Source: Chlamydiota bacterium (lineage in GTDB: Bacteria > Chlamydiota > Chlamydiia > Chlamydiales > Parachlamydiaceae). From it: a stretch of 64,000 nucleotides of DNA. The notes under the pieces are model-generated. The model saw only the letters and a program-made list of their open reading frames with translations. It searched no databases and was not told the DNA's origin. Positions 6,636 to 53,182 of the stretch are shown here, piece after piece; the stretch's first letter is position 1; the number at the start of each line of letters is the position of its first letter. The stretch lies in contig JABDBC010000003.1 of assembly GCA_013288825.1 (NCBI GenBank), positions 16,409-80,408 of the forward strand. The letters are read 5' to 3'. The translations under genes were made by a program, and so were the position numbers.

Positions 6636-7703
6636 ATGGAAAACAAGTTATCGGTCGTTACCACGAATGTTCCAAGCGACAACCAATTTGATTCACCACA
6701 TTATGAAAATTCATTTACCGCTCACGCTAAGGCTGCAAACACAGTTAATGCATATCTGTCAGATTGGGAAGATTTTTGCCTATGGTGTAATCAAAACAAC
6801 TGTCGATACCTTCCAGCGGACCCAAAAAAAGTTGCAGATTATTTAGAGGATAGGGCTACAAATACATGGTGGGGTATTTCTGGACAAAATCGGCAAATGA
6901 AAGAGAAAAGACCATTGAAATGGTCGAGCTTATTGAGAAGACTTACAACGATTAGCAAAATGCATCACTATCAGGGAATGCCATTCAAGCGCAAGCATCC
7001 AGCGATAGAAAAAACCTTAAGCGGCATAAAGCGAGTGTTTAGCGAAAAACAGCCTCATCGCATCGTTGAAATAAGAAAGGACCCTCTTTGTATTGAAGAG
7101 ATCCGTGCGATGGTGGAATCTCTACCAAATACGCTCACTGGTATGCGTGACCGTGCTTTATTGCTAATTGGCTTCTCAGGTGCTTTTAGACGTTCTGAAA
7201 TTGTTAAGATATGTATAGAAGACCTGACATTCTGTAAGGAAGGCATCTTGGTGTTCTTACCATGGTCCAAAACGGGTTCTAGGAAAGTCCCAATACCATA
7301 TGGATCTAGCCATGCGACATGTCCTGTGAGAGCATTACAAGAATGGATACAAGCTTCTTGTATTACCCAAGGGGCTGTTTTTCGTGCAATCAACAAGCAT
7401 GGGCATATTCGAGCTACGGGACTATCAGATAAAAGCGTTGTGCTGATTATTAAGCGGAATGATTACCTTAAGCGGATGCTAATTGATGCTTTGGACTTAA
7501 AAAAAATGGATCCGACCATTTCTGTTCCAAACTATGGAGGACATAGCCTGCGGGCAGGATTTGTTACAACGGCTATTTTGAATGGTGTGCCAGAGTATTC
7601 GATCATGAAGCAAACAGATCACAAGAAAAGTGACACTGTTAAAAAATACATACGTGAAACTCTAAAATGGAAGGATAACGCTGCAACTAAACTGGGGCTC
7701 TGA
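6636..7703 (+). CDS. Tyrosine recombinase / integrase (pGP7/8-like), intact
   Basis: 355 aa with an N-terminal SAM-like core-binding domain (about 25-120, TVNAYLSDWEDFCLWC) and a C-terminal catalytic domain. Catalytic residues are visible in order: Arg in GAFRRSEIVKI (about 184), the His-x-x-Arg box GGHSLRAGF (about 303), His in TDHKKSD, and the nucleophile Tyr in VKKYIRE (about 337). A ribosome site AAAGGAAAG precedes the ATG. Chlamydial plasmids carry related integrases. Two decayed copies lie downstream in the same orientation, so this gene is the presumptive active member of the set and may have moved the cassette that follows. Confidence 0.9.
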   Translation: MENKLSVVTTNVPSDNQFDSPHYENSFTAHAKAANTVNAYLSDWEDFCLWCNQNNCRYLPADPKKVADYLEDRATNTWWGISGQNRQMKEKRPLKWSSLLRRLTTISKMHHYQGMPFKRKHPAIEKTLSGIKRVFSEKQPHRIVEIRKDPLCIEEIRAMVESLPNTLTGMRDRALLLIGFSGAFRRSEIVKICIEDLTFCKEGILVFLPWSKTGSRKVPIPYGSSHATCPVRALQEWIQASCITQGAVFRAINKHGHIRATGLSDKSVVLIIKRNDYLKRMLIDALDLKKMDPTISVPNYGGHSLRAGFVTTAILNGVPEYSIMKQTDHKKSDTVKKYIRETLKWKDNAATKLGL

Positions 7704-8008
7704 CATAAGGCAGCGGTTTTACAGAGGGTCGTTCAAAGATTTCGTAAGTTTCTGACTCGTGTAATTAAAAAAAATTACTAGTTTACACAAAAAGATAGAC
7801 GAAACAATACAATAAAATGTCATTAATGACTGAACAATATATTTATTAACTTTCTTTAATTTGCTCATGAAATATTTTAAGTTTTTGAGATTATAATGCC
7901 ATGACAAATTTACACGAATACCGCATTAAAACCACTAACATTTAAACATTTTAATTCAAGTTTAACAATTCAAATATTAAATTTCTAGATATGAGTGTTG
8001 CATATGAT
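7704..8008. other. Intergenic region between integrase and lanthipeptide operon
   Basis: 305 bp of AT-rich sequence between convergent genes. No coding potential, no clear terminator stem and no RNA gene seen. Confidence 0.5.
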
Positions 8009-9373
8009 TTAATTGAGTAGAAAGATCGAAAGCCACCGTGGTTGCCTTTTGGAAATTGAAAAAAGCAAACTCAGAGTGATCCCGGCTGAACCAGTTAGCA
8101 GTCCTGGGTTATCGATAAGTAAGATTTCTTCATACCGATTTGACGGAGCTATAGACTTAAAGCCAAATGCAGCTTCTTCCCTCGATTCTTTTAGAATTAT
8201 TTCTGAGATTTCTCTTGCGCTTTCCAATAAGGATTCATTTCCTAAAAGCACCCCAGCATTGTGTACAATTGTTAGAACGCCTGCGAGCCCGTAACAAAAA
8301 GGCAAGCCTCTACTGGTATGATGGTTGCGAATCCGCTGCATCATCTTGAACAAACCTTCTTTACACTCCTTGACGAGTGCATGATCTTTTAAAGCACATG
8401 CGGCGAGCAATAGAGAATTAAGAATCCCTGGAGCCCCGTGAGCCCACCCATCAAAATAATCAGTAGATCGAACCTCTACAAAATTTGGGTTTTTAAGATT
8501 TAATCCGAGCCTTTTTGTCCAAAGATTACCAAGACCTTCAACCTCTTCTTGAGATTGTTGCAGCCATCGTATTATTTTATACATCGCTTCTCGCTGCCCT
8601 TCCACTTCTACTTGGCAAGACAATGCTTTTGCAAGTGCAGCAAGGCATCCAGAGATTCCGTGAGCTAGTCCCGTTTCGAAAAAGCCGTTTGGATAATTTT
8701 TTAGCAAATCTTCGACAATATGTTTTGGAACGGCTTGTCTAATGCGAGAGTCATGTAAATTAACATACCATCCGGGAATTTTACAGTTTTCAACAGAAAT
8801 GTCTTTTGCAACTCTTACAAGCTGATAAAGCATGCGTTCAAGTAGTTCTCGAACGTCAGAATTGTCTTGATAGGCAAGTAAATAGAAAACGAAACAAGGC
8901 AGCCCTTCGATAGCATCATGTTCAGAGGGAAGTAAGGTTCGTCCAATTTCTTCTTCGCTCTCTATAAGACTTAGAAATTCTCCTTCTAGATATTGCATCA
9001 GCTTAAAACGATAGATATCATCCAATTTAGAATACGAAGGATCTTTTTGAGCGATGAGTTGTGTCGCAAAACAGACTCCGGTAAACCCACCGAATAATGA
9101 GAAATCTGTAGGTTCGATTTCTTTCACAATGGTTTCAAGATCATTCATCAGAGATTGATATACCTCACGCCATCCTTCGTTTGGAACATGGGTATCCATT
9201 TCGGCAAAAAACACAATTAGACCAGGGTATCCATAATCAAGCGATAGTGGATCCCATGGAGATATCTCTTCCATAAAGATGTTTTCATCTCTTAAGGCTA
9301 TCTGTGCTACTTCCTGAGGGTTTTTTAGTTTTTGTGCAACTAAAAGGCAATTTCTTCTGATCGTCTCATTCAA
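8009..9373 (-). CDS. LanC-like lanthipeptide cyclase 1, partly altered zinc site
   Basis: I take the TTG at 9373, which overlaps the lanB stop; a longer frame from 9523 would run inside lanB, and the TTG start aligns with the start of the second LanC. The product is 454 aa. LanC alpha-toroid motifs are present: GLAHGISG (His238, the position of NisC His212), GWAHGAPGI (about 309) and PFCYGLAG (about 358). Canonical LanC zinc ligands are Cys in W-C-x-G and Cys-His in C-H-G. Here the first is Ala311 followed by His312, and the second pair is Cys360-Tyr361. The enzyme would close thioether or avionin rings; whether this site binds zinc is open. The last 25 residues lie in a short repeat shared with 23416-23490. 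Confidence 0.82.
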   Translation of the reverse strand: MNETIRRNCLLVAQKLKNPQEVAQIALRDENIFMEEISPWDPLSLDYGYPGLIVFFAEMDTHVPNEGWREVYQSLMNDLETIVKEIEPTDFSLFGGFTGVCFATQLIAQKDPSYSKLDDIYRFKLMQYLEGEFLSLIESEEEIGRTLLPSEHDAIEGLPCFVFYLLAYQDNSDVRELLERMLYQLVRVAKDISVENCKIPGWYVNLHDSRIRQAVPKHIVEDLLKNYPNGFFETGLAHGISGCLAALAKALSCQVEVEGQREAMYKIIRWLQQSQEEVEGLGNLWTKRLGLNLKNPNFVEVRSTDYFDGWAHGAPGILNSLLLAACALKDHALVKECKEGLFKMMQRIRNHHTSRGLPFCYGLAGVLTIVHNAGVLLGNESLLESAREISEIILKESREEAAFGFKSIAPSNRYEEILLIDNPGLLTGSAGITLSLLFSISKRQPRWLSIFLLN

Positions 9374-12300
9374 GCCATTACACCATGGGGTTGAAATGTC
9401 ATTTTTTCCAAAAAGTACAACGCAGCTACACGAGCTTTTTGCTCTAGCTGAGATGAGGTTCCTAATAATCGATTGCAATGCATATGAATGAGGCTGTCGA
9501 CGATTTGTGGAAGAGGATTCCAAGCTTCTCCACTAGATTCCACTTTTGCGATTGTCTTTGCCAAGAGATCAAATGTGGCATGAGTATGGGAATAGCACTT
9601 TTTAAGAAATTGTAAAAGGGGATCTTGCGTGTCGCTTTCATCATTCACAAGAATTGCTTTTGTAAATTTCATCCCTATTTTGCTAAAGGGTCTGATTCCA
9701 TCTAAAAGGTGTGCCTGATCCTTGCTTGAAGCCATGGTCGTGAGTATATTTTTTGTATCGGGAAAAAAACGATGCAAAATATTGATAATTCCCATGCTGG
9801 CTATTAGGTGGAGTGGTAGTGACGAGTCTTTTCGTGCCAAGATTTTTAATATAGATCCACTATCGGCACAGAAAACATCTTCCGCTAATTTGATACACTC
9901 GGGTCCCCCATAACGCTCTATTTCAGGTTTATAAGAACATATGCTAAAGTCTTCTATTTCTCCCTTTCCAGTTAAAGAAGCAAGCCAACGATTAAGCTCT
10001 GGAATCATCTCCTGTTTGATTTGTTCTGTATCAGCACAAATTCTCAAACGTATATGAAATCCTCCTTCATTATATCGAATGTAGAACCATCGAGGATTGT
10101 GAAATTGCTTCATAACATATTCCATATGAGGAAGAAGAAATCGGCTAAGAAAAAGATCGGCATCATTAGATGATAGAAATATTTTTGCATACCACCAGTC
10201 ACCTCCAGGAAAAAAGAACCGTTCAGACACAGGAAATTGATCTGTCCTGGGATAGAATTTTTTGGTCTCATTTGCAACAATCGAAGGATCTTTGACGACT
10301 GGTACAACAAACTCGCAGACATGCCGTTCTCCAGCCCCTGCGCTGACAAACAAATTCTCTTTTTTATCTCTTTGCTCCTGGAGCGTAATTTCTTTTGTCT
10401 TTATAAATTCTTTGAGAATTACATCAAAATGTAACTCACGATTCCAATGAAGCTGTAAGTGATTATCACCTTGAACTAGTAGAACTGTTGAAGGGACCCG
10501 ATATTTTTTAAAGGCATCCTTTACAACTAAGCTCAACTTTTCCTTGGTAATTGCCTGATCAATATATAATAGCGGATAACTGAAACGCCATTCCGCTGGT
10601 GCCAAGACAATGTTTTCATAGACTATCCTTGGTGAGTAGACCCCTTTTTTAAGAGAGCTCCAACTAGATCTTGTGAATCTGTTCATCTGGTATTGTGATA
10701 AAAACAACAATACCCTTAGTGGAAATGGCATATAAATAGGATTTGTCATCACGTTTGGTGTGATGATGATTTCTTTATTTAATTTTTTCGAAAAGAGATA
10801 AATCTTGTGATGATCTGCTCCAACATAGATATCATCCAGACTTACCACATTTGCTTTTTCCTCTTGATAATGCATTGGCAGCTGGATCGGACGTAATTGT
10901 ATTCCTACAGAAATATTCCCAACCTTGCTTTTATCTGGGACAAACGAGGGCTCCAGAATGATTAGGTGGGGGAATAATTTCTCCTCTTCTTTAACGAAAT
11001 TAGAAATTTCATTTGTTTTTTCTTTATCCCAAAAGTTCAGAAATCTTCCAAACATCCCTCCTGCTTGATGCGATAACCCTCGTATGAGCAATGTAAAACG
11101 GTTTTGTTCTATCTCCTCATAGTCCTTAGCTTCGATTTCGAAAAATAGCTCCTGTGATGGAGGGAGCGTTTGCTGTTCTTGTAATGTTAGAGGGGGAAGA
11201 GAATCAACATAAGGGGCAATATTAATTTGCTCATGTTGTGAGTGGAGAGCTAGGAAATGCTCAAGTGGGTTTATTTCCCTTTGTTCTTCTGCGCCTTCTT
11301 TTCCTGTTACTAGATCAAAAACGCGTTGTGTTTGGGCAATTTCAGAAAATGGAACCAAGCGTTCAGTACCATATTTTTCTAGAAAGAACCTGTAAAAAAT
11401 TGTTAAGACGTTAGGCTTTTCTTGTGTAAACGAAACTCTTGTTAATACATGAATTGCCTTTTCAACAGCTCTCTGTACATTATTGTGCAATATGATTTGT
11501 TTTGAATCATAGTAATGATCCACTCTGAGAGGATTTTTTATCTCTTTTTTCCATACTTTCAGTTCATGTGTGATTTTTTCCAGAAGCTCGATTTTCTCTC
11601 CCAATCGAGAGCTCTCATATTCTTGAATGTCTCTTAGAATTACTTCTAACTTCTTAACTTCATCCAGGTGACCAACTCTTTCCAAAATGTCATGAAAGGC
11701 TTCTGGAAAAGAAGAAAGAATTGATGGATTCACAAGCTGAGAAGTCAGATAATTTCTCTGGAATAATTCCCATAGATAATTTTGAACTTTCTCTTTCTGA
11801 CCAACAGAAAAACAGGACACCATTTGTTCTTCGAGCTCAAGATATTCAATAGGAGTTTGTGCCAAACGACGCACTTCTTCATATGCTGATGTAATTTTGA
11901 TGGAAGTATAATCTTCTTGGAAACTTGGATGATCATTGTTTAGAAATACTCTGTCATTTCTATAGATCAACTGCGTATTAAGTCTTACCCTTAACCGTCT
12001 TACAGCTTCAATATCTTTATGAATCACCTCTATAAGTTCTCTAACGCATTCTGAACCTAGAGAAACCTTTTTTTTCAGAAATTCGACATCAAATGGCATC
12101 TCTGTTTTTTCCCCAAACTTTCCCCAGCCTACAGAAGAAAAAAGACCAAAAGGGGTCGCCCGAGAACTCATCCGTATGAGATATTTGGAAAGGCTTAGGT
12201 AAAAAGGGATTTTATCAGGAATTCTTTCCCATTTTTTCAGGACTTGATGAAGATCAAAGCTGGCTGTGGCGATGGCTTCCTGGAAGAAGGGATTATTTTG

Positions 12301-12420
12301 ATAAAAACGGATTAGCTCCTCAATACTTTCTAGATCCAAAATTTCCAATGACTTGAAAGGGAGATTAGCATAACGAGCCATAAAAAAATCTGCTGACTTG
12401 TATGTGTGTGCGACTTTCAT
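9370..12420 (-). CDS. lanB: Class I lanthipeptide dehydratase LanB, full length
   Basis: 1016 aa, matching single-chain LanB enzymes such as NisB (about 990 aa) rather than split versions. The glutamylation domain occupies about 1-700 and has the hallmark MSSRATPFGLFSSVG at 84-98, with Arg83, Arg87 and Thr89 at the NisB-like positions. The elimination (SpaB_C) domain is about 740-1010: WWYAKIF, WFYIRYNEGGFHIRLR and the YKPEIERYGG motif. It would dehydrate Ser/Thr of the precursor using glutamyl-tRNA. It is the fourth gene of the lanA-D-C2-B-C1 operon; the start is supported by CGGAGA seven bases upstream. No truncation is visible. Confidence 0.92.
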   Translation of the reverse strand: MKVAHTYKSADFFMARYANLPFKSLEILDLESIEELIRFYQNNPFFQEAIATASFDLHQVLKKWERIPDKIPFYLSLSKYLIRMSSRATPFGLFSSVGWGKFGEKTEMPFDVEFLKKKVSLGSECVRELIEVIHKDIEAVRRLRVRLNTQLIYRNDRVFLNNDHPSFQEDYTSIKITSAYEEVRRLAQTPIEYLELEEQMVSCFSVGQKEKVQNYLWELFQRNYLTSQLVNPSILSSFPEAFHDILERVGHLDEVKKLEVILRDIQEYESSRLGEKIELLEKITHELKVWKKEIKNPLRVDHYYDSKQIILHNNVQRAVEKAIHVLTRVSFTQEKPNVLTIFYRFFLEKYGTERLVPFSEIAQTQRVFDLVTGKEGAEEQREINPLEHFLALHSQHEQINIAPYVDSLPPLTLQEQQTLPPSQELFFEIEAKDYEEIEQNRFTLLIRGLSHQAGGMFGRFLNFWDKEKTNEISNFVKEEEKLFPHLIILEPSFVPDKSKVGNISVGIQLRPIQLPMHYQEEKANVVSLDDIYVGADHHKIYLFSKKLNKEIIITPNVMTNPIYMPFPLRVLLFLSQYQMNRFTRSSWSSLKKGVYSPRIVYENIVLAPAEWRFSYPLLYIDQAITKEKLSLVVKDAFKKYRVPSTVLLVQGDNHLQLHWNRELHFDVILKEFIKTKEITLQEQRDKKENLFVSAGAGERHVCEFVVPVVKDPSIVANETKKFYPRTDQFPVSERFFFPGGDWWYAKIFLSSNDADLFLSRFLLPHMEYVMKQFHNPRWFYIRYNEGGFHIRLRICADTEQIKQEMIPELNRWLASLTGKGEIEDFSICSYKPEIERYGGPECIKLAEDVFCADSGSILKILARKDSSLPLHLIASMGIINILHRFFPDTKNILTTMASSKDQAHLLDGIRPFSKIGMKFTKAILVNDESDTQDPLLQFLKKCYSHTHATFDLLAKTIAKVESSGEAWNPLPQIVDSLIHMHCNRLLGTSSQLEQKARVAALYFLEKMTFQPHGVMA

Positions 12421-12475
12421 AAAAAAATCTCCGAATAAAGTGGCTATGTAAACTTAGGAATGGCAATGACAGCCC

Positions 12476-13783
12476 TTAAGTGATTACAAGTGGATCATGC
12501 TTATCCTCAGCAACAAGTAAAGAGAGCCCGATTCCCGCTGCTCCCCCCAACAGAGTTGGACAGTCAACTGGAAACGGTGCTGCGTCTGCATTTATGTTAA
12601 ATTGAGGAAAACAAAAAGCAACATTTGGATCAAACAGGCGACTGCAATGTGTAGTTAATTTTCGTATTGTTTGCAGCAGAGGTTGGTTATTGGTTTCCTT
12701 GGCGATTGGATATAGGGTCGAAATGAACCCAGCTATCCCAAAGTAAAATGAGGATCCTCCCAAAAAGAAGACAGGCTCCTTTTCGATAAATTTTGCACAG
12801 AGATCTTGAGAAAATTGGAAAAGAACTTCATTTTTGAGAGCCTTGCTCGCCAAGAATAGGCTTTTTGCCACTGATGGCCATCCCAAGATCCAAGTATTCT
12901 GGAATCCTTCATGGTGAGCAGGAAGTGCATCGATCTTTCTTTCAGTGGAAATAATGGAGTTCCAATAACAATTTCCGAATACATACTGATAGGTTTCTTT
13001 GAGCCAAAAGGCAATGTGCTCAATGGCCCTAAAAATACTATCAGAACGAATGCCTTCGGTCGCAGCTGAAGATAAGGCTGTCAAACATCCTGTGACTCCA
13101 TAAGCCATTGAGGAGTTATATCCTCTTTCAAAGTCAGGAGTATGATATATCGGTGCAAGCAAATCGTTAGTGTAATACCAGGCTTCGACTTCGGATTGTC
13201 CTACAATCTTTTTCGTGAGCATTAATTTTGCAAGGTCGTTCACACAAGTCTTGGCAAGCTGTTGTAAATATGGATGATCTTTTCTCGTCAAAAGATAGCT
13301 GATAATCCCGCTAAGACCTGAAGCATAGCCATAAAAAAAAGGAGGAATGAGAGTATCCCTTGATAAAAACCTTGGGATTATACTTAAAATTGATCGTGTA
13401 ACATCCTCTATGAGCCAATCATCAATTCCTTCATGAAATTTATGAAAATGGTCTGAACCATTTTGAATGGACGACATCCCTAAACTGATCCCTGCAAGTC
13501 CACCAAATAATGAGCCATTCACAGATTTATGCTCTTTGAAGTGATCTAAGGCTTCTAGGATGTATTTTTGAGCAATTTTTCCCCAATTATTACCTGGGTA
13601 GGCTTTATCCATTGCAGAATAGAAAAAAGCAATTCCAGCAAATCCATGTGCAAAAGAGTAACTTTGCCACTGACTACTTGGTCCCTCTATTCGACTCATT
13701 GAAGTCTCAGCAATCTTCTGTACATTTTTTGGATCTTGCAGTCTTTCAGCAATACTTTCACAAATGAATAGTGGATGTGTCAC
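12476..13783 (-). CDS. LanC-like protein 2, catalytic and zinc residues lost
   Basis: 435 aa starting at a GTG with AGGA upstream, 9 bp after lanD. It aligns along its length with cyclase 1 (N-terminal ICESIAERLQDPKNVQKIA; alpha-toroid repeats FAHGFAG, LFGGLAGIS, YASGLSG, MAYGVTG, LLGGAAGIG). The LanC metal ligands are absent: the W-C-x-G site reads W298-Ile-Leu-Gly, and the C-H-G site reads Tyr347-Phe348-Gly. The catalytic His equivalent is Tyr228. It is therefore probably not a cyclase itself; a scaffold or leader-binding partner of LanB or cyclase 1 is my inference. Retention of the full fold and frame argues against simple decay. Confidence 0.8.
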   Translation of the reverse strand: MTHPLFICESIAERLQDPKNVQKIAETSMSRIEGPSSQWQSYSFAHGFAGIAFFYSAMDKAYPGNNWGKIAQKYILEALDHFKEHKSVNGSLFGGLAGISLGMSSIQNGSDHFHKFHEGIDDWLIEDVTRSILSIIPRFLSRDTLIPPFFYGYASGLSGIISYLLTRKDHPYLQQLAKTCVNDLAKLMLTKKIVGQSEVEAWYYTNDLLAPIYHTPDFERGYNSSMAYGVTGCLTALSSAATEGIRSDSIFRAIEHIAFWLKETYQYVFGNCYWNSIISTERKIDALPAHHEGFQNTWILGWPSVAKSLFLASKALKNEVLFQFSQDLCAKFIEKEPVFFLGGSSFYFGIAGFISTLYPIAKETNNQPLLQTIRKLTTHCSRLFDPNVAFCFPQFNINADAAPFPVDCPTLLGGAAGIGLSLLVAEDKHDPLVIT

Positions 13784-13792
13784 AAGAAATTC

Positions 13793-14386
13793 CTAGGGGG
13801 TATGTAACCAATTTTCATCAAAGATCGCTTCGCTTTCGTTTATCTCTTCTCGAATGAATTGCAAGATTTCGTCCAGAGGCGGTGCGTATTTGCCTTCTAC
13901 AACGGCTCCTGAGGCATACTCAAATCCCATTTGTTGCTTAGGCGCAATGATTTTATGCCCATATTCTTTAAGGATTGAAATATTCCGCTGTGTTGCAGGA
14001 TGATCCCACATTGCCTTATTCATGCTGGGAACGAAAATAATAGGCTTTTGATAGCATAAAATAGTACTTGATAAAAGTGAGCTACTCGTTCCATGCGCAG
14101 CTTCTGCTAGGATGTTTGCTGTAGCAGGTAGTACGATAAAAAGATCTGCCCATCGCGCTAGCTGTACATGACAAAACTCTTTTGGAGTAGAAGATAATGG
14201 AAACAGGCGACTGTAAATGGGGCCGACGATCAACGATAGGGACTCTTCAGGAATAAATTCTTTGGCTGATTCAGTCATTATTACTTTAATAGAAGAAAAA
14301 ATATTCCGAAAATGTTGCAGATACGCAGGCATGCTTAACATGCCAAACGAGCCGGTCATGCCAATTAGCATTTTAGTATTGGTCAT
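13793..14386 (-). CDS. lanD: LanD: peptidyl-cysteine decarboxylase (EpiD-type flavoprotein)
   Basis: 197 aa, the usual HFCD flavoprotein size. Key motifs: an N-terminal GMTGSFGM nucleotide-binding loop, His73 in FCHVQLARWAD (position of the EpiD active-site His67), PATAN at 87-91 (PASANT motif), and PSMNKAMW at 120-127 (PxMNxxMW substrate clamp). Enzymes of this family oxidatively decarboxylate a C-terminal Cys to an ene-thiol, which then forms aminovinyl-cysteine. The neighbouring precursor ends in Cys, as required. The PPC decarboxylase Dfp/CoaC is the main alternative family, but the operon context favours LanD. Confidence 0.9.
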   Translation of the reverse strand: MTNTKMLIGMTGSFGMLSMPAYLQHFRNIFSSIKVIMTESAKEFIPEESLSLIVGPIYSRLFPLSSTPKEFCHVQLARWADLFIVLPATANILAEAAHGTSSSLLSSTILCYQKPIIFVPSMNKAMWDHPATQRNISILKEYGHKIIAPKQQMGFEYASGAVVEGKYAPPLDEILQFIREEINESEAIFDENWLHTP

Positions 14387-14408
14387 TGATAAAACTTCCT
14401 ACTTTAGA

Positions 14409-14434
14409 ATACCCTGCAGGAAGCTGCAGGGTAT
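14409..14434 (-). terminator. Strong hairpin between precursor and enzyme genes
   Basis: A perfect 11-bp stem (ATACCCTGCAG / CTGCAGGGTAT) with a 4-nt loop sits between the lanA stop and the lanD start. In the operon direction there is no U-run behind it, so it fits a transcript-stabilising or attenuating stem-loop better than a full terminator. Leaky hairpins after the precursor gene are known in lantibiotic operons and give excess precursor over enzymes. Read on the plus strand it is followed by CTTTTT. Confidence 0.6.
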
Positions 14435-14470
14435 CTTTTTAACAGAATAAGACTCAAGCTACAGTAGTTT

Positions 14471-14689
14471 TTAACATGCTGCAATTACGCTAGCAACTTT
14501 TAGAAGAGAAGCAGTTGCTGCTACACCTATGCCTATTATAGTTATAGTGGTAGTCGGAGTGGCTTCATTCACTAAAGGTCCTTCAGCAGTAGATCTAAAT
14601 TGACGAATATCCATCGCAAATGGATCTGCAACCTCCTGATTTGATATACCAACCGGTGTTTCACGGTGTATTGGATTAATATTGCTCAT
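14471..14689 (-). CDS. lanA: Lanthipeptide precursor LanA with predicted AviCys C-terminus
   Basis: 72 aa, first gene of the operon, with GGAG seven bases before the ATG. The leader (about 1-40) contains PFAMDIRQF at 23-31, close to the FNLD box that LanB enzymes of class I recognise. The core is hydrophobic and rich in Thr/Ser/Ala: Thr44, 46, 47, 48, 50 and 59, Ser61 and Ser67. The only Cys is the last residue, Cys72. With LanD present, Cys72 should be decarboxylated and joined to dehydrated Ser67 (SVIAAC, i to i+5). Up to seven further residues could become Dha/Dhb. The leader cleavage site and the protease are not evident here. Confidence 0.85.
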   Translation of the reverse strand: MSNINPIHRETPVGISNQEVADPFAMDIRQFRSTAEGPLVNEATPTTTITIIGIGVAATASLLKVASVIAAC

Positions 14690-14731
14690 AATTCACTCCA
14701 TTTTTTTATTGTTGTTTTGAAAACCTCTCTG

Positions 14732-14759
14732 AGTCGATCCAATAACAGTTTGATCGACT
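14732..14759. promoter_or_regulatory. Inverted repeat upstream of the lanthipeptide operon
   Basis: AGTCGATC and GATCGACT, 8-bp perfect arms 12 bp apart, centred about 55 bp before the lanA start. The placement in the 5' leader or promoter suggests an operator or 5' UTR hairpin. A TTGACA box on the minus strand at 14854-14859 has only a weak partner (TTAGCA), so the promoter itself is uncertain. Confidence 0.45.
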
Positions 14760-14895
14760 ATCTCAGAATGCTACTCTGCAATGCAATAGGAATGATCCCT
14801 CATGGGTTTTCTTCGTGAAGGACCAACACATGCTAAAGCAAATAATTTATATTTGTCAAAACATAAAAATGTCCGGTTTCATAGCTAATTGAGAT

Positions 14896-15487
14896 GCAGT
14901 CTTTGTATTGAAGAGGTCCGTGCGATGGTGGAAACTCTACTAAACATACACAGGTTTGCGTGATTGTGCTGGCTTCTCAGGTGCTTTTAGACGTTCTGAA
15001 ATTGTTAAGATATGTATAGAAGACCTGACATTCTGTAAGGAAGGCATCTTGGCGTTCTTACCATGGTCCAAAACGGGTTCTAGGCAAGTCCCAATACCGT
15101 ATGGGTCTAACCATGCTACATGTCCTGTGAGGGCATTACAAGAATGGCTGCAAGCTTCTAGTATTAGCCAGGGTTCTATTTTTCGTGCAATAAACAAGGA
15201 CAGGACTATTTGACAAAAGCGTTGTGCTGATTATCAAGCGGAATGATTACCTTAAGCAAACGTTAATAGACGCTTTGGATTTAAAAAAAATGGACCCGAC
15301 TATTTCTGTTCCAAACTATGGAGGACATAGCTTGCGGGCAGGATTTGTTACAACGGCTATTTTGAATGGTGTGCCAGAATATTCGATCATGAAGCAAACA
15401 GATCACAAGAAAAGTGATACCGTTAAGAAATATATTCGTGAAACTCTAAAATGGAAGGATAATGCTGCAACTAAGCTGGGGCTATGA
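14896..15487 (+). pseudogene. Truncated second copy of the integrase
   Basis: Closely matches 7084-7703 of the intact integrase at the DNA level (for example identical runs around the FRRSEIVKI and GGHSLRAGF codons). It lacks the first 150 codons and carries a 12-base deletion near 14965 plus an 18-20 base deletion and frameshift near 15205. The last 87 codons, including the HxxR box and catalytic Tyr, remain open but cannot make a full enzyme. It lies in the same orientation as the intact copy and brackets the lanthipeptide operon. Confidence 0.88.
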
Positions 15488-15668
15488 TTACATCAGACAG
15501 CGGGTTATAAGGGCGGTAGGGTAGCCGTCTATTACGCAACACCATCCAACCGCGATCAAAATGCTATTGGAATTTATTGGATTTTGATGGTGTAATATGC
15601 AGATTGCTGCACCGCCAGTGCACCGACTCTCGCTTCATAGTTCATATTCATTTACCTTAACTTTCTAA

Positions 15669-15710
15669 TCCGGCAAAATCATGCAAAAATTCTTGCCGGA
15701 TTTTGCCGGA
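15669..15710. promoter_or_regulatory. 12-bp inverted repeat, candidate autoregulatory operator
   Basis: TCCGGCAAAATC and GATTTTGCCGGA are perfect arms 18 bp apart, and the GCCGGA word occurs again just inside. The repeat ends 35 bp before the AlbA_2 gene, whose product carries a DNA-binding domain, so self-control is a reasonable inference. Confidence 0.5.
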
Positions 15711-15744
15711 TTCGGTAAAATAGAAGAAAAAAATAGGATGGATT

Positions 15745-17130
15745 ATGGAAATTGAGATGTTGATTAAACAACCAGAATCAAAGACTTTGGAGTTTAAAAG
15801 GGATCTTTCGTCCTTACTTCCTGTTCTTAAAACTATCATTGCTTTCGCAAATACTGCAGGAGGAATCATCATTATTGGTTGCTCTCCTCCAGGAATAATC
15901 ACTGGTGTGCAAAATGTTTTCAAAGAGGAAGAAAGGCTTGCAAATGCAATTGCAGATAGTATTCATCCATTTCTTCTTCCAGAACTTGAAGTGGCTACTC
16001 TTGAAGGAAAAGATCTTTTAATAATAAAAGTTGCACATTGGAAAGGTCCTTTTTACCTTAAAAAGGAAGGCATGCCCAAAGGTGTCTATGTTCGATTAGG
16101 ATCGACAAGCCGCCCAGCAGGACCCGAGCTTATATCTGAACTTCAACGGTCTGTTTTATCTCTTTCTTTTGATCAACAGCCTTTGCCGGATTTGACAAAA
16201 GGTAGCTTGGACTTAGAAAAAATCGAACAAATTTTCAAAAGTCGAGGCAAAGAAATTAATACAGACAAACTTCAATCTTTAGGTATTTTAGTTCCGCATG
16301 CAAGGAATTTAGTTCCTTCAGTAGGCGGACTTATTTTGTTTGGTAGACCTTCTGAATTAAAGCAATCCTTTCCAGATGCGCGAGTAAGCTGCGGAAGATT
16401 TATAGGAGACAACAAGGCCAATATCCTGGATCGCTATGAAGTAGAAGGGACTATTTTAGATGCTGTTGAATCTGTCCCTAAATTCATAGCTCGTAATACA
16501 AGACTAGCAGCTCAGATTGAGGGAATTCGACGTAAGGATATACCGGAATATCCACATTTGGCTATCCGTGAAGTTTTGATTAACGCTTTGGTCCATAATG
16601 ATTACTCAATTAAAGGCGCACATATTCAAATTGCTATTTTTGACAATCGTTTAGAAGTTCAAAATCCAGGAATGCTCCCATTTGGATTTACTATGGAAGA
16701 CTTAAAGGCAGGGGTAAGTCGAGTACGCAATCGTGTGATTGCACGTGTATTTCATGAATTACAACTTATGGAAGTGTGGGGAAGCGGCTACAAACGATGT
16801 ATGGAAGATTGTAGACTTGGCAACTATTTAGCACCAGAATGGCTGGAATTGGGCGCTGCAGTTCGCGTTACATTTTCTCCTCATCAACGAACACAAACTA
16901 AAGAACTACAACCTTCTCAAGAAGTTCTACATGAACTTTTAGAACGCCAGAAAACCATATTATCTCTTTTTCAACCTGGATTACAACTATCATTCCGCGA
17001 AATTTTTAAACTTCTTTCTGAATCAATCCCTGAGCGCACGTTGCGATATGATCTTGCCCTTTTACGGAGTAGAAAATTATTACTTCCACAAGGGAAGGGG
17101 CGGGCCACTGTATGGCAATTATTTGAGTAA
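15745..17130 (+). CDS. AlbA_2 / RecG-like putative DNA-binding ATPase regulator
   Basis: 461 aa. The N-terminal AlbA_2 (Schlafen) domain is about 1-125: ESKTLEFKRDLSS, then AFANTAGGIIIIGC, then GVYVRLGSTSRPA. A central region of HATPase_c_4 type is at about 270-390, with REVLINALVHNDYS, NPGMLPFGFT and VWGSGYKRCMEDC. A C-terminal winged helix reads ERTLRYDLALLRSRKLL. Such proteins are annotated as ATP-dependent DNA helicase-like or transcriptional regulators; real helicase motifs are absent. AGGATGG precedes the ATG; an in-frame ATG at 15757 is an alternative. It is a free-standing gene with an upstream palindrome. Confidence 0.85.
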   Translation: MEIEMLIKQPESKTLEFKRDLSSLLPVLKTIIAFANTAGGIIIIGCSPPGIITGVQNVFKEEERLANAIADSIHPFLLPELEVATLEGKDLLIIKVAHWKGPFYLKKEGMPKGVYVRLGSTSRPAGPELISELQRSVLSLSFDQQPLPDLTKGSLDLEKIEQIFKSRGKEINTDKLQSLGILVPHARNLVPSVGGLILFGRPSELKQSFPDARVSCGRFIGDNKANILDRYEVEGTILDAVESVPKFIARNTRLAAQIEGIRRKDIPEYPHLAIREVLINALVHNDYSIKGAHIQIAIFDNRLEVQNPGMLPFGFTMEDLKAGVSRVRNRVIARVFHELQLMEVWGSGYKRCMEDCRLGNYLAPEWLELGAAVRVTFSPHQRTQTKELQPSQEVLHELLERQKTILSLFQPGLQLSFREIFKLLSESIPERTLRYDLALLRSRKLLLPQGKGRATVWQLFE

Positions 17131-17321: not shown

Positions 17322-17470
17322 AATAAGGACTTACCATTTCTTTTCCAAACTATAGAGGACATAGTCTTCGCGCAGGATTTGTTACAACTGCTATTTTGAA
17401 TGGTGTGCCAGAGTATTCGATCATGAAGCAAACAGATCACAAGAAAAGTGACACCGTAAAAAAACACGTC
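17322..17470 (+). pseudogene. Third integrase fragment
   Basis: About 150 bp nearly identical to the 3' catalytic part of the intact integrase (codons for ISVPNYGGHSLRAGFVTTA through DHKKSDTVKK), ending abruptly before the catalytic Tyr. Same orientation as the other two copies. It marks an old recombination end between the AlbA_2 gene and the AbiE region. Confidence 0.85.
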
Positions 17471-17503: not shown

Positions 17504-18049
17504 TTAACTTAAATGATCGTCTTTAGGTACTTCACAACTGATTTCATTTTTAGATGCTTTATCCAAAAGACTAAGAATAGTTTTTTCAGAGACAGGTTTG
17601 TAATCCCAAACCTCAACACATAGGTTGAGTCGATTGGATATGATCTTTCTAGGTCTTTTATCGTGGACATGACCGTGCAATTGAAAATGGGTTGGAGCTT
17701 GTTCGGAGGGAATATGAATAAGCTCAACAAGATGACGGCCAATTTTCAAAAAGGCTGACTCCAGAACAATATTGAATCCGACCCGAGTCATCCAGCTTGC
17801 ATTTCGATCGTGATTGCCGCGAATACAAATCTTTTGACCATTGAGTTGTGAGCAAATAGAGTGAAGGTGTTCGACATCTCCCAGTCCGAAATCTCCAAGA
17901 AAGAAGACTTGATCATCCTTACCTACGCTTTGATTCCAATTATCAATGAGATTTCTATCCATCTCTTCAACATTTGTATATGGACGACTTGCGTATCTTA
18001 TGATATTGGTGTGTGAGAAGTGAGTATCTGCGATAAACCATTTTTTCAT
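17504..18049 (-). CDS. Calcineurin-like metallophosphoesterase
   Basis: 181 aa. Metal-binding motifs of the family are in order: FIADTHFSHTNII (D-x-H), VFFLGDFGLGD (GD), IRGNHDR (GNHD), and a C-terminal LHGHVHDK (GHxH). These coordinate a dinuclear metal centre for phosphoester hydrolysis; the natural substrate is not predictable. The gene follows the AbiEii remnant by 11 bp and ends at a clear terminator, so it belongs to the AbiE transcript. Related small phosphoesterases accompany mobile and defence loci, but a joint role here is only inferred. Confidence 0.88.
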   Translation of the reverse strand: MKKWFIADTHFSHTNIIRYASRPYTNVEEMDRNLIDNWNQSVGKDDQVFFLGDFGLGDVEHLHSICSQLNGQKICIRGNHDRNASWMTRVGFNIVLESAFLKIGRHLVELIHIPSEQAPTHFQLHGHVHDKRPRKIISNRLNLCVEVWDYKPVSEKTILSLLDKASKNEISCEVPKDDHLS

Positions 18050-18060
18050 ATTCGATCTCT

Positions 18061-18932
18061 TTATTCAGAAGTGCATAGTTGCGTATTATTACTTAGCCAA
18101 GAATTAATGAAAGAAATTACATCTTGGATTAATTCAGGAGGCTTATTCGCAACTTGATTACTTGAGAGATTCTTTTGATATTCGCGCCATAATGGTTGCA
18201 ACATCTCTATAAATTCAACATCATACTTTAGAGGTAATTTCAGCTGGGTTTGTCTATGATTAAACACTGTTGTCACGACCTTATGAGTGTAATCGGGATC
18301 TAAGCATTTCTTTAAAGAGATGAGAGAGTGGAGGTCATGAAAATCCTTCATTCTGGTGTTACCCATGCCGCGATGAACCACTGTCTCGAGCTTCTCTGCA
18401 AAAATAAACTCTTTGGGATACGAACGAACTTGAATTTTACTTTCAAAAAGAGGACCTTTCGATGTTGATGTTAAATCCATCGAATAGTCAATAGCCTCTA
18501 CGATATCCCCAAAACCTAGATCAATCTGAATATAAGTTTGTGGTCCACCCAGCTTTGCTAAAAGCAGCACCTCAATGCCTGTGTAGTCCATGTGAGGATG
18601 TGCAAGCTTGCCTATTTTTACTTTTTCAAATTCAAATCCATCTTCGAGGTGAACACTACAAATGTGATCGAAGGCTTTACTCACGAACTCTTCTGTATTT
18701 TGCAGTTTATCAACCAAGAAATCTAAATCCTTTGTTTCACGTCCTATGGTATGTATCGAGCTAGAAGAGATCCCCCTTTAAGAATGAAGTTACCCTTATA
18801 CTTAGATTGACAGAGTCGGGCTAAGAACCGCTCTAAAATCAAGTTGTGCCAAATTTCATCAAAAGTAAGATCGCGTTCCTTCGCAATCGACCGAAGTCGT
18901 TGTTTCATGGATTGTTTTAAAGAATTGTTCAT
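18061..18932 (-). pseudogene. abiEii: AbiEii nucleotidyltransferase toxin, frameshifted
   Basis: The N-terminal part (18744-18932) has the nucleotidyltransferase motif LKGGSLLARY. The frame then stops, but a one-base shift near 18740 restores the expected RETKDLDF motif and joins it to the 218 aa downstream frame, which has QIDLGFGD and the C-terminal helical part with FAEKLETVVHRGMGNTRMKDFHDL. The start codon overlaps the antitoxin stop as ATGA. AbiEii toxins transfer nucleotides and arrest growth in type IV systems. A single frameshift could be inactivation or a sequence error. Confidence 0.85.
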
Positions 18933-19525
18933 GTTGTGAGTGCCATAATGAAGGGATGAATATCGACCCGAAGCGTCTTAGCATATTTCAGAAGCTTATT
19001 TAGATCAGGTTTAGCAGAACCAGTTTGACGAAGGTAAGCCTGTAATGCCTTAATGGCAATTTCTTTGCTTAAATACCGAAAGGAATCGACCACTGTTCTT
19101 TCTTTATCAAAAATTTTAAGATGGGCTGTTCCTAATTGAATTACTGTTTGCCCAAGTTCAATATTTCGCATGCGAATGATTCGCGTTTTAGGTCTTTGAG
19201 GACTTTTTAAAGCGTGAGGAATTGCAATCCAAAACTGCCTCATTATTTGATCTGTAAGGCCGTAATAACAAAGTGCTGAGATCAAGCAAATTACCCCATT
19301 GGGTATGCTCATCGCCATTAAAGCTAAATCTTCCCATTGAAAATCGATTTCTATCTTTGCTTGAGAACCTTTGTAAACGCCACGAGTTACTCGTTCTATT
19401 ACGCCTTTTTTACAAAAATGAGCAAGCATACGGGAGGGAATGCCAGCAACTCGAGCTTCAGAAGCCGTGAAAACTGGCGTTTCTATAAAAACTTGAATAG
19501 CAGCATCATATTTTGAAGTAGTCAT
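18929..19525 (-). CDS. abiEi: AbiEi-type antitoxin / transcriptional regulator
   Basis: 198 aa. An N-terminal winged-helix reads VFTASEARVAGIPSRMLAHF, then the conserved VIERVTRGVYKG, followed by the AbiEi C-terminal region (ALMAMSIPNGVICLISAL, CYYGLTDQ, then EIAIKALQAYLRQTG). AbiEi binds its own promoter and neutralises AbiEii without binding it. It overlaps the toxin gene by 4 bp. A perfect inverted repeat at 19543-19571, just upstream, matches the expected autoregulatory site. Confidence 0.88.
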   Translation of the reverse strand: MTTSKYDAAIQVFIETPVFTASEARVAGIPSRMLAHFCKKGVIERVTRGVYKGSQAKIEIDFQWEDLALMAMSIPNGVICLISALCYYGLTDQIMRQFWIAIPHALKSPQRPKTRIIRMRNIELGQTVIQLGTAHLKIFDKERTVVDSFRYLSKEIAIKALQAYLRQTGSAKPDLNKLLKYAKTLRVDIHPFIMALTT

Positions 19526-19542
19526 AGTCTAACGTGTAACAT

Positions 19543-19571
19543 AAGTACCCATAAATTTCAAGTGGGTACTT
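19543..19571. promoter_or_regulatory. Inverted repeat, probable AbiEi operator
   Basis: AAGTACCCA and TGGGTACTT, perfect 9-bp arms 11 bp apart, 18 bp upstream of the abiEi start. AbiEi proteins are known to repress through inverted repeats in their promoters. The following stretch to 19832 shows no gene. Confidence 0.6.
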
Positions 19572-19832
19572 GAATTACATACAATTGAATAGCTTTCCTC
19601 ACTGTGGAGATGACAAGTACAGAGCAAAGTCATAAAATTCGGTGTAATCAACACTGAGATCTGGAATATTGGAGTTAAACGGTGCTCCTTGATTATAGAA
19701 TAGTGTTATCAAATTGACTTTTGCCATGATTCAAAGCATATATGCAAAAGTGCTTTCCTCATCAGAAGGAATGCCTGAAAAAGCTTCTAAGGGAGAAAAT
19801 AAGCACGGCTTCACACCAACCGGAGAAAAACC

Positions 19833-19995
19833 ATGTCACAAACCTTATCGACGTTGTTGCTTCGCAATCTCCACGACGTGTTCGGTGAGATTGATCCCGT
19901 GCGTCGACGCGCAACGGTCGATGAAATCTTTCACGAAGATGCTGTGTTCTATGATCCTAACGGTGGCATTTACCGAGGCTGCGACGAGATCGACA
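19833..19995 (+). pseudogene. NTF2/SnoaL-like protein, 5' fragment only
   Basis: About 54 codons of a SnoaL/NTF2-fold N-terminus (LLLRNLHDVFGEIDPVRRR, then VDEIFHEDAVFYDPNG). CGGAGA lies before the ATG. The base composition is visibly more GC-rich than the surroundings. At about 19989-19996 the sequence switches into an antisense AbiEii fragment, so the reading frame beyond is foreign. The fragment looks like a recent import from a distant donor. Confidence 0.7.
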
Positions 19996-20234
19996 TGGAT
20001 TTTATCTTTCATCTTAGCAAAAGTGGCTTTTAGAATTGTTCGATAACCAGGATATTCCAAATGCGGCTTAGAAAGTGGCTCTATGCGTTCAAAGGAAAAG
20101 GTGAATCCATCGTCTGATGATATCGATACAATCTCTTCAAAGACTTCTTGAAGCCCTTTTACTTCGGCATTCATAGTTTTACTTCGAGCCGTTTCCTTAG
20201 TAAGGTTATGAAAGAGTTTTATTTTATTAAGCAA
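19990..20234 (-). pseudogene. Second AbiEii-like fragment
   Basis: The minus-strand frame encodes ISSDDGFTFSFERIEPLSKP, then HLEYPGYR and KIHVDL, matching the centre of the AbiEii at 18061-18932 (DGFEFEKVKIGKLAHPHMDY, QIDLGFGD). After VDL the frame continues into the reverse of the NTF2-like fragment. It lacks both the nucleotidyltransferase motif and the C-terminal half. A sequence of about 9 bp (GATCGACAT) sits at the junction. Confidence 0.7.
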
Positions 20235-20397
20235 GGCTTTCCAACTATTGGAAAAAAGCTCTGAAGAGCAGACAGAAAAATTAAATTAATGGTGCAAAGT
20301 CTCATCTACGAACTTATGCTTAGTACCGTCATTGCATAGGGACTGCATCTTATGGTATACTACCGTATTTCAGAGAAATGAAGACAAGGAGTCAACT

Positions 20398-20625
20398 ATG
20401 ACACTTAGTGAAGAGGCTATGTGTTTTCTCGAAGAACATATTCCAGAACTCGCTGATGTAGCATTCAAGCAGGCATACTGGGCCGCCCTGGCATCTGGAA
20501 GTAGTGTACTTATAAGTGAAAATGGGAATCTTGTGGAGGTATTTCCTGATGGGAAGCAAAGTTTTATCAAACGTCTACCTCCATCAACGCCAGTAACCCG
20601 CGGTCAGAGGTTGGAAATTCAATGA
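20398..20625 (+). CDS. Small putative antitoxin paired with the zeta-like kinase
   Basis: 75 aa from the ATG at 20398, chosen because AAGGAG lies 6 bases upstream; an earlier in-frame ATG at 20332 has no such site. The sequence (LSEEAMCFLEEHIPELADVAFKQAYWAALASG) is a short helical protein of a type commonly encoded directly before zeta-family ATPases. It overlaps the next gene by 4 bp (ATGA). Its antitoxin role is inferred from that pairing. A TATACT box occurs at about 20355-20360. Confidence 0.65.
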   Translation: MTLSEEAMCFLEEHIPELADVAFKQAYWAALASGSSVLISENGNLVEVFPDGKQSFIKRLPPSTPVTRGQRLEIQ

Positions 20626-21371
20626 ATAAAGGAATCCCTCGTCTTCGTATGTTCGCAGGCCCAAATGGTTCGGGTAAGAGCACATTTAGATCCATCATCC
20701 GTCCTGAACTGCTTGGAATATACATTAACCCCGATGAGATCGAAAAGGAAATTCGTGATTTTGGTTTCCTTGATCTTCAAAGCTATCAAGTAACAACGAC
20801 GGCAAAAGAAGTAATAGATTTTTTTATTAATTCTCCGCTTCTAAAAAAAGCCGATTTGCTAGACGATGTGCATAGCCTGCGTTTCAATGATGAGAAATTG
20901 AGTTTCCATAACGTGGGAGTCAATGCTTATTTTGCCTCAGTTGCAGCCGATTTTGTCCGTAACAAGCTCATTGAATGCTCAAAATCTTTTACTTTTGAGA
21001 CTGTAATGTCCTTTCCAGATAAGGTGGAGTTGCTCCGTAGGGCACAAACAAAAGGCTATCGAACCTATCTCTATTATGTAGCAACCGAAGATCCTTCCAT
21101 TAATATCTCGCGTGTCCGCTATCGGGTAAGAATGGGTGGACATTCCGTGCCGGAGGATAAGATTGTAAGCCGTTACAAACGCTCTCTTGATTTGTTGATG
21201 CAGGCTGTTCAATTCACCAATCGTTCTTACATTTTTGATAACTCGACTCATGAACACATCTGGTTAGCAGAAATCACCGATGGACAAGTGCTGGAAATGA
21301 AAACAGATCAGATCCCTGCATGGTTTAAAAAAACTTTGGGAGGCAAATTCAATATAGAAAATAAGAGATAG
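20622..21371 (+). CDS. Zeta toxin-family P-loop kinase
   Basis: 249 aa. Walker A GPNGSGKST at about 14-22; then YINPDEIEKEI, FTFETVMSFPDKVELLRRA and GYRTYLYYVATEDP, and the zeta signature RVRYRVRMGGHSVPEDKI with SRYKRSLDLL. Zeta toxins phosphorylate UDP-activated sugars and block envelope synthesis. The residue set is complete. Translation is coupled to the upstream small gene. A housekeeping role cannot be excluded, as many chromosomal members lack proven toxicity. Confidence 0.85.
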   Translation: MNKGIPRLRMFAGPNGSGKSTFRSIIRPELLGIYINPDEIEKEIRDFGFLDLQSYQVTTTAKEVIDFFINSPLLKKADLLDDVHSLRFNDEKLSFHNVGVNAYFASVAADFVRNKLIECSKSFTFETVMSFPDKVELLRRAQTKGYRTYLYYVATEDPSINISRVRYRVRMGGHSVPEDKIVSRYKRSLDLLMQAVQFTNRSYIFDNSTHEHIWLAEITDGQVLEMKTDQIPAWFKKTLGGKFNIENKR

Positions 21372-53035: not shown

Positions 53036-53182
53036 TTATCTTGGATGTCACCTAAAGCATGCTTAGGCAATTTTAGGGTTGCGTAAGCACTAGAGACAGT
53101 CACTGAACTTGAGTTAATTGATTTTAATTTAACATGCGATATAATAAAAAATGGTATAACGAAAATATGAGTGAGGGGTTTT

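What the first reader, a model, noticed from the sequence alone, without database searches (positions are those of the whole stretch)
8009..14689. Class I lanthipeptide operon on a chlamydial-type conjugative plasmid
Seen: contiguous minus-strand genes for a 72 aa precursor, EpiD-type decarboxylase, two LanC-like proteins and a 1016 aa LanB with the SRATPFGLF motif, next to chlamydial plasmid core genes and F-type tra genes. Established: this set makes dehydrated, ring-closed peptides. Inference: an obligate intracellular symbiont may use it against co-infecting bacteria or within the amoeba. I know of no characterised lanthipeptide from Chlamydiae, but I could not search. No transporter, protease or immunity gene is evident in the operon.
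Basis: partly seen in the sequence, partly recalled or inferred. Interest (0 to 1): 0.93.

Follow-up and report, generated by a model that had tools for sequence, protein, structure and literature searches.

The report
Zinc-free peptide-ring operon in a chlamydia
A plasmid-like DNA of a chlamydia relative carries five genes predicted to make a chemically modified peptide; both relatives of ring-closing enzymes lack the full set of zinc-binding residues and the peptide has one cysteine, its last residue, so it likely closes a single ring without zinc, which would be a new way to build a rare antibiotic-type ring.

Summary
In detail: precursor, LanD, LanC-like, LanB and LanC-like genes lie on the minus strand at 8009-14689, beside chlamydial plasmid genes and F-type tra genes. 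The reading "this set makes ring-closed lanthipeptides" needs correction. Neither LanC has the Cys/Cys/His zinc triad of class I cyclases: LanC1 has I/Y/F, LanC2 A/C/Y. This is not random decay: LanC2 belongs to a supported clade of 11 zinc-less LanCs, the nearest 57-58% identical, all keeping the acid-base His. Of 64 LanCs found beside non-chlamydial LanBs, 63 keep the triad. Among 21 chlamydial loci with an assessable LanC, the three without a zinc-type one all carry LanD, and their precursors have 1, 1 and 2 Cys and end Ser/Thr-x4-Cys. I conclude that this is a class-I-like route to a peptide with dehydrated residues and one C-terminal AviCys-type ring, probably closed by a zinc-free LanC working on the LanD-made enethiol, as kinase-fold RosX does in class Va. 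LanB matches occur in 27 of 232 chlamydial genomes. Chemistry, export and target are untested.

The parts
14471..14689 (-). precursor (LanA), 72 aa; leader box FAMD at residues 24-27; 10 Ser/Thr and one Cys (C72, last residue) after it; ends SVIAAC
   Evidence: similar leader box in other chlamydial precursor candidates
13793..14386 (-). LanD, flavin-dependent Cys decarboxylase homologue, 197 aa; H73 and PSMN motif kept
   Evidence: PF02441 2e-27; best PDB match MrsD 8e-35, EpiD 3e-20; only TIGR00521-family hit in the genome and below its cut-off
12476..13783 (-). LanC1, LanC homologue with no zinc ligand and no acid-base His (I/Y/F; Tyr in place of the His)
   Evidence: PF05147 1e-25; alignments and tree
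9370..12420 (-). LanB, full-length dehydratase homologue (N- and C-terminal Pfam domains), SRATPFGLF motif
   Evidence: PF04738 5e-104 and PF14028 2e-46; PDB matches MadB 9g04 and NisB; 25-sequence alignment
8009..9373 (-). LanC2, LanC homologue; zinc triad C/C/H replaced by A/C/Y, acid-base His kept; TTG start overlaps LanB stop
   Evidence: PF05147 9e-46; fold model matches MadC 8byk and NisC
14409..14434 (-). hairpin between precursor and LanD (11-12 pairs), possible processing site or attenuator
   Evidence: z -2.45, 4 of 200 shuffles as stable; as a terminator (T run) it fits the + strand only; function inferred
14830..14859 (-). promoter-like site TTGACA-18-TAGCAT upstream of the precursor
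   Evidence: consensus match only, region holds no more such sites than shuffles (16 against 19.3)
6636..7703 (+). tyrosine recombinase, 355 aa, flanking the operon
   Evidence: PF00589 4e-11
14900..15487 (+). truncated second recombinase copy on the other side of the operon (91-93% identical pieces)

Best explanation
Five minus-strand genes encode a peptide whose only cysteine is its last residue, a LanD, a full-length LanB and two LanC homologues that both lack the zinc triad; they are predicted to make a peptide with dehydrated Ser/Thr and one C-terminal aminovinyl-cysteine (AviCys) type ring, likely closed by zinc-free LanC2 acting on the enethiol that LanD would make. Shown: gene content, loss of the ligands, conservation of that loss in a clade, and its coincidence with few-Cys precursors and LanD in three loci. 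Inferred: LanB dehydrates the core (10 Ser/Thr follow the leader box); LanD oxidatively decarboxylates C72; the enethiol adds to dehydrated S67, giving an S-x4-C ring; the enethiol needs no zinc activation, so the LanC2 pocket, which keeps the His that protonates the enolate, serves as the template; LanC1, without ligands or His, is a scaffold or leader-binding partner. Export, leader removal and target (a competing bacterium in the same host cell is my guess) are not known.
For: LanC2 has A/C/Y and LanC1 I/Y/F in place of NisC C284/C330/H331. LanC2 lies in a clade of 11 zinc-less LanCs (support 97/83; with an intact sister 100/99); 11 of 11 keep the H212 equivalent and 7 of 11 the D141 equivalent; nearest members are 57-58% identical over full length. 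63 of 64 LanCs found beside non-chlamydial LanBs keep the triad. Of 21 chlamydial loci with an assessable LanC, all 3 with no zinc-type LanC have LanD, against 2 of 18 others (Fisher p 0.0075); their precursors have at most 2 Cys after the leader box, against 0 of 16 others with an accepted precursor candidate (p 0.001). All three precursors end S/T-x4-C, the ring span of rosin Thr20-Cys25, which is closed by Zn-free RosX (PMC12291118: abstract, passages and section 9). LanD is closest to MrsD among solved structures. A zinc-free LanC-fold cyclase domain is known in class III (PMC10604976, passages).
Against: The three loci share one ancestral zinc loss, so the p-values overstate independence. 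L122's precursor candidate lies on the opposite strand, has a weaker leader box and two Cys. In L127 the only ORF that passed the scan (one Cys after the motif match) was set aside on judgement; counting it would weaken the second contrast. One of L119's two candidates has only 2 Cys beside an intact LanC. No LanD or precursor could be checked for the 8 other zinc-less LanC2 proteins. Four chlamydial precursors with 4 to 10 Cys also end S/T-x4-C. A C-terminal AviCys may also form without a cyclase. Zinc-type LanCs from the genome's other two lan loci could act in trans. LanC2 is modelled at mean pLDDT 74.5 only; the blocks holding the ligand positions average 55 and 53. The LanC control was found with zinc-type queries and could miss very divergent LanCs.
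Confidence: 0.5

Rival explanations
1. The same AviCys ring forms, but without a cyclase: LanD makes the enethiol, which adds by itself to the nearby dehydroalanine; both LanC homologues are only scaffolds or leader-binding chaperones for LanB.
For: LanC1 has lost ligands and acid-base His alike; in rosin work the enethiol still cross-links without RosX, though to the wrong residue (PMC12291118).
Against: LanC2 keeps the acid-base His in 11 of 11 clade members, which a pure scaffold would not need; without RosX the ring is misplaced.
Confidence: 0.22
2. An ordinary class I lanthipeptide: C72 keeps its carboxyl group and is closed to lanthionine by LanC2 with an altered metal site, or in trans by zinc-type LanCs of the C7 or C20 loci.
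For: The genome holds two LanCs with the full triad; LanC2 keeps one Cys ligand and has a His next to the lost one (WAHG).
Confidence: 0.15
3. A decaying cluster: the LanCs are on the way to pseudogenes and no ring is made.
For: Decayed or partial lan loci exist: stops in LanB and split LanD frames in L121 (a record with ambiguous bases), partial LanB in L141-L143, a 118-bp junction remnant in this genome.
Against: All five frames are open; LanC2 is 57-58% identical to relatives that keep the same replaced motif; zinc-less LanC1 is kept in seven loci as one clade at 100/100.
Confidence: 0.08
4. A linear dehydrated peptide with only a decarboxylated or free C-terminal Cys; the hydrophobic core acts in membranes without a ring.
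For: The C-terminal part is strongly hydrophobic (19-residue mean up to 2.0 within residues 44-72).
Against: S/T-x4-C is present in all three precursors of this type.
Confidence: 0.05

Closest known systems
Class I lanthipeptide enzymes MadB/MadC (maddinglicin) and NisB/NisC
   Different: both LanCs lack the zinc triad; one Cys in the precursor; LanD present; two LanCs
RosX and class Va lanthipeptides (rosins, PMC12291118)
   Same: LanD with a predicted zinc-free cyclase; C-terminal S/T-x4-C
   Different: there the cyclase has a kinase fold and dehydration uses LanK/LanY; here LanC fold and LanB
ThurKC, class III synthetase (PMC10604976)
   Same: LanC fold without the zinc ligands (S/F/D there; S/F/Y in the LanC2 of L118)
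   Different: a kinase-lyase-cyclase fusion that also lacks the acid-base Asp and His; here stand-alone with LanB, His kept
MrsD (mersacidin) and EpiD (epidermin) decarboxylases
   Same: LanD homologous at 8e-35 and 3e-20; active-site His and PxMN aligned with MrsD (their roles recalled)
   Different: those precursors have several Cys and zinc-type cyclases (recalled)
Lanthionine synthetase gene group of Candidatus Algichlamydia australiensis (PMC11317633)
   Same: predicted chlamydial lanthipeptide-type gene; T4SS plasmid in the same genome
   Different: the passages I saw name only a predicted synthetase; no precursor, LanD or zinc site is discussed there

Membership tests
class I lanthipeptide cluster | LanB with glutamylation and elimination domains | tested here: met
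   PF04738 and PF14028 both over cut-off; aligned to NisB over residues 35-993
class I lanthipeptide cluster | precursor with FNLD-type leader box and Ser/Thr/Cys core | tested here: met
   FAMD box; 10 Ser/Thr, but only one Cys, after it; like boxes in other chlamydial candidates
class I lanthipeptide cluster | LanC fold | tested here: met
   PF05147 for both; LanC2 model to 8byk and 2g02; LanC1 not modelled
class I lanthipeptide cluster | LanC zinc triad Cys/Cys/His | tested here: not met
   LanC1 I/Y/F, LanC2 A/C/Y
class I lanthipeptide cluster | product contains lanthionine | not testable with these tools
   needs mass spectrometry
LanD (EpiD/MrsD) Cys decarboxylase | flavoprotein fold with active His and PxMN motif, not CoaC | tested here: met
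   alignments; H73, PSMN at 120; no ACGD motif (CoaC motif recalled); below TIGR00521 cut-off
class Va / thioamitide AviCys system | LanK/LanY dehydration and kinase-fold LanX cyclase in the cluster | tested here: not met
   no such family among the seven proteins of 6636-17130 scanned; one PF01636 match lies 39 kb away
class Va / thioamitide AviCys system | C-terminal S/T-x4-C in the precursor | tested here: met
   SVIAAC; rosin Thr20-Cys25; thioamitides recalled
class III lanthipeptide synthetase | kinase-lyase-cyclase fusion | tested here: not met
   LanCs are stand-alone
chlamydial conjugative plasmid | plasmid core genes with F-type tra | tested here: met
chlamydial conjugative plasmid | circular, separate molecule | tested here: inconclusive
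   80,408-bp contig, no exact end overlap

The most novel reading that the evidence does not exclude
Chlamydiae have turned the class I LanC cyclase into a zinc-free AviCys cyclase that works on an enethiol: a second fold, besides kinase-fold RosX, for the same ring closure, paired in the window's operon with a fully degenerate LanC partner. It is kept in at least 11 sequences, including one from the strain Rhabdochlamydia porcellionis.
Probability: 0.4. Interest if true: 0.85.

Novelty: new variant of a known kind. Interest (0 to 1): 0.7.

Why it matters
Outside class III, LanC-type cyclases are described as sharing strictly conserved, required zinc ligands (PMC10604976, PMC9889658, passages). 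A conserved clade of stand-alone LanCs that lost them, found in three loci with precursors reduced to one or two cysteines and a cysteine decarboxylase, makes the question of who closes AviCys rings directly testable in a class-I-like system. It also shows that obligate intracellular bacteria keep, and perhaps move, peptide-natural-product operons: LanB matches in 27 of 232 chlamydial genomes here. A named strain, R. porcellionis, carries the same type of operon.

Tried and rejected
LanB-encoding loci on viral contigs: none found. Plasmid records: 87 with a LanB relative, the 15 listed at 24-26% identity and none of those 15 chlamydial; 72 were not listed. The first genome-contig scan with the single LanB found nothing, the second with an alignment kept 79 distinct loci, the best of 498 stretches. 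Precursor relatives by sequence: only itself. Peptidase_C39 exporter in the genome: none, with 8 of 14 control genomes positive. LanD as the organism's CoaBC: rejected, because it sits in the lan operon, is 47% identical to the LanD of the G151 operon and scores below the CoaBC cut-off; but the genome shows no other CoaBC, so a second role is not excluded. Three of the 8 genomes with a LanD-like hit (G042, G073, G080) have open frames of 408-430 aa, taken as CoaBC and not counted as LanD. A cargo cassette moved by the flanking recombinase was considered: the copies are 91-93% identical direct repeats and another piece lies near the C20 lan locus, but no junction or empty site was shown. Conserved alternative metal site (His of WAHG plus Cys of CYG): rejected, not kept together across the clade. 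Prior-art searches: (open-access library only); none of the listings or passages I read describes a zinc-less stand-alone class I LanC or a chlamydial LanD/AviCys system. Two listed papers with both lanthipeptide and chlamydi words were checked by passages and do not (PMC13083261, PMC11118758); the other listed papers were seen as listings only, unless named in the report; of PMC3482391 I saw passages and of PMC7268733 passages, neither with anything chlamydial on this.
Full report
OBSERVATION. The minus strand of 8009-14689 holds, in this order, a 72-aa precursor, a LanD, a LanC homologue (LanC1), a 1016-aa LanB and a second LanC homologue (LanC2). Families are unambiguous: PF05147 for both LanCs (1e-25 and 9e-46), PF04738 and PF14028 for LanB, PF02441 for LanD. 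The nearest solved structures by sequence are 8byk (MadC) and NisC for the LanCs, 9g04 (MadB) and NisB for LanB, and MrsD for LanD, with EpiD further down. LanC2 probably starts at a TTG at 9373 that overlaps the LanB stop. A GGAG stands six bases upstream of the precursor ATG, a promoter-like site further upstream, and a 12-pair hairpin lies between precursor and LanD; with its T run that hairpin looks like a terminator on the + strand only. The rest of the window carries chlamydial plasmid genes and F-type tra genes. The 19.7-kb Rhabdochlamydia porcellionis plasmid has a similar core set: an ATPase gene beside the matched hypothetical protein, a tyrosine recombinase and ParA. The contig did not close on itself.

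THE ZINC SITE. NisC binds zinc through Cys284, Cys330 and His331, with Asp141 and His212 for acid-base steps (PMC9889658, PMC10604976; passages). In LanC2 the triad is A/C/Y, with the His and Asp kept; in LanC1 it is I/Y/F with both His and Asp lost. Of 31 LanC homologues of 300 aa or more in chlamydial lan loci (the window's two included), 18 have the full triad, 12 do not and one is truncated. As control, 64 LanCs were found in 64 non-chlamydial LanB loci and 63 keep the triad; the exception is L091 with CY for CH. The control queries were zinc-type LanCs, so very divergent ones could be missed. LanD-like genes occur in 7 of those loci (one of only 118 aa), none of them L091, so LanD alone does not go with loss.

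EVOLUTION. The tree of 56 LanCs (four copies or truncated rows dropped first) needs three changes of state: a LanC1 clade of 7 (100/100), a LanC2 clade of 11 (97/83; 100/99 with one intact sister), and a pair in loci L127 and L129 (100/100). In the LanC2 clade all 11 keep the His and 7 keep the Asp. P0124 and P0125, 57-58% identical to LanC2, keep the same WAHG and CYG motifs; they lie on contigs of the same length as LanBs P0003 (a Waddliaceae bacterium) and P0002 (linking by length is inference). So the zinc-less protein looks maintained, not decaying.

LINK TO THE PRECURSOR. Chlamydial precursor candidates share a leader box such as DPFDLD or DLYDLD, like the FDLD motif of MadA (PMC12241602, passages). 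I tabulated 21 loci with an assessable LanC (left out: L135 with a broken LanC, four loci with no LanC match, partial loci L141-L144). The three with no zinc-type LanC are the window, L118 and L122. L118 (G151) is R. porcellionis by its 1,492,183-bp contig, the length given for the named protein P0008. All three have LanD; 2 of the 18 others do (L132, and L121 where it is split). Their precursors have 1, 1 and 2 Cys after the leader box; each of the 16 other loci with an accepted candidate has at least one precursor with 4 or more, though L119 also has a candidate with 2. L123 gave no candidate, and in L127 the one ORF that passed the scan was judged not to be a precursor. All three precursors end S/T-x4-C: SVIAAC, SIFQKC, TAILMC; from the Ser/Thr share of their own tails this has a rough chance of 0.006, a figure taken after seeing the pattern, and four many-Cys precursors end so too. 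These loci share one loss, so the Fisher values (0.0075 and 0.001) are descriptive. My first automatic filter had missed the L118 precursor; one search repeats the scan without that filter. L122's candidate is weaker: opposite strand, EVD box, second Cys.

CONTEXT. LanB matches occur in 27 of 232 chlamydial genomes. The window's own genome has two further lan loci with zinc-type LanCs and many-Cys precursors (C7, C20) and a 118-bp remnant of the LanB-LanC2 junction elsewhere. The operon lies between a full and a truncated copy of a tyrosine recombinase, and a piece of the same recombinase lies about 2 kb before the C20 lan locus, which hints at recombinase-linked movement. L122 adds an ABC transporter pair inside the operon and a methyltransferase next to LanB; the window has none.

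WHAT IS KNOWN. Predicted biosynthetic clusters, RiPP-like ones among them, are reported across Chlamydiae (PMC9666466, passages), a proteusin cluster in a hydra symbiont (PMC13229535, passages) and a predicted lanthionine synthetase in Algichlamydia (PMC11317633, passages). I found nothing on zinc-less stand-alone class I LanCs or chlamydial LanD in the searches named under Tried and rejected.

VERDICT. The operon is real and probably functional, but it is not filed as a canonical class I lanthipeptide cluster because the LanC zinc triad was tested and not met. It is best read as a class-I-derived, zinc-free AviCys-type system.

Noticed in passing
L009 about 8658-8820 (G000:C4:68699-68816): A sharply bounded 118-bp piece, 97% identical to the LanB/LanC2 junction, sits alone in another contig of the same genome.
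   Followed up: partly
window 17333-17467; G000:C20:21202-21428: Further pieces of the flanking tyrosine recombinase, one about 2 kb from the genome's C20 lan locus.
   Followed up: partly
L127:5807-7102 and L129:12705-14063: A third, separate pair of zinc-less LanCs, convergent to an intact LanC-LanB pair.
   Followed up: no
L128, L130, L134, L136: Chlamydial LanB genes with no LanC matched in the fetched stretch; precursor candidates in L130 and L134 end in Gly-rich tails with one or two Cys.
   Followed up: no
L122:7664-14838: The zinc-less operon of genome G176 also holds an ABC transporter pair and a SAM methyltransferase next to LanB.
   Followed up: no
L121:6032-7502: Four different precursor candidates in tandem before a lan operon with stops in LanB and a split LanD; the record holds ambiguous bases, so sequence error is possible.
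   Followed up: no
L091:8357: The one non-chlamydial LanC of 64 without the triad (CY for CH), in Ktedonosporobacter rubrisoli.
   Followed up: no
window 17504-21371: AbiEi/AbiEii type IV toxin-antitoxin pair and a zeta-toxin-like gene near the operon.
   Followed up: no
window 53171-54694: 507-aa protein with a PF01636 (APH) match, the family given for LanK in class V, 39 kb from the operon; link not tested.
   Followed up: no
G000 whole genome: No CoaBC above cut-off; the operon's LanD is the only member of that family found.
   Followed up: partly
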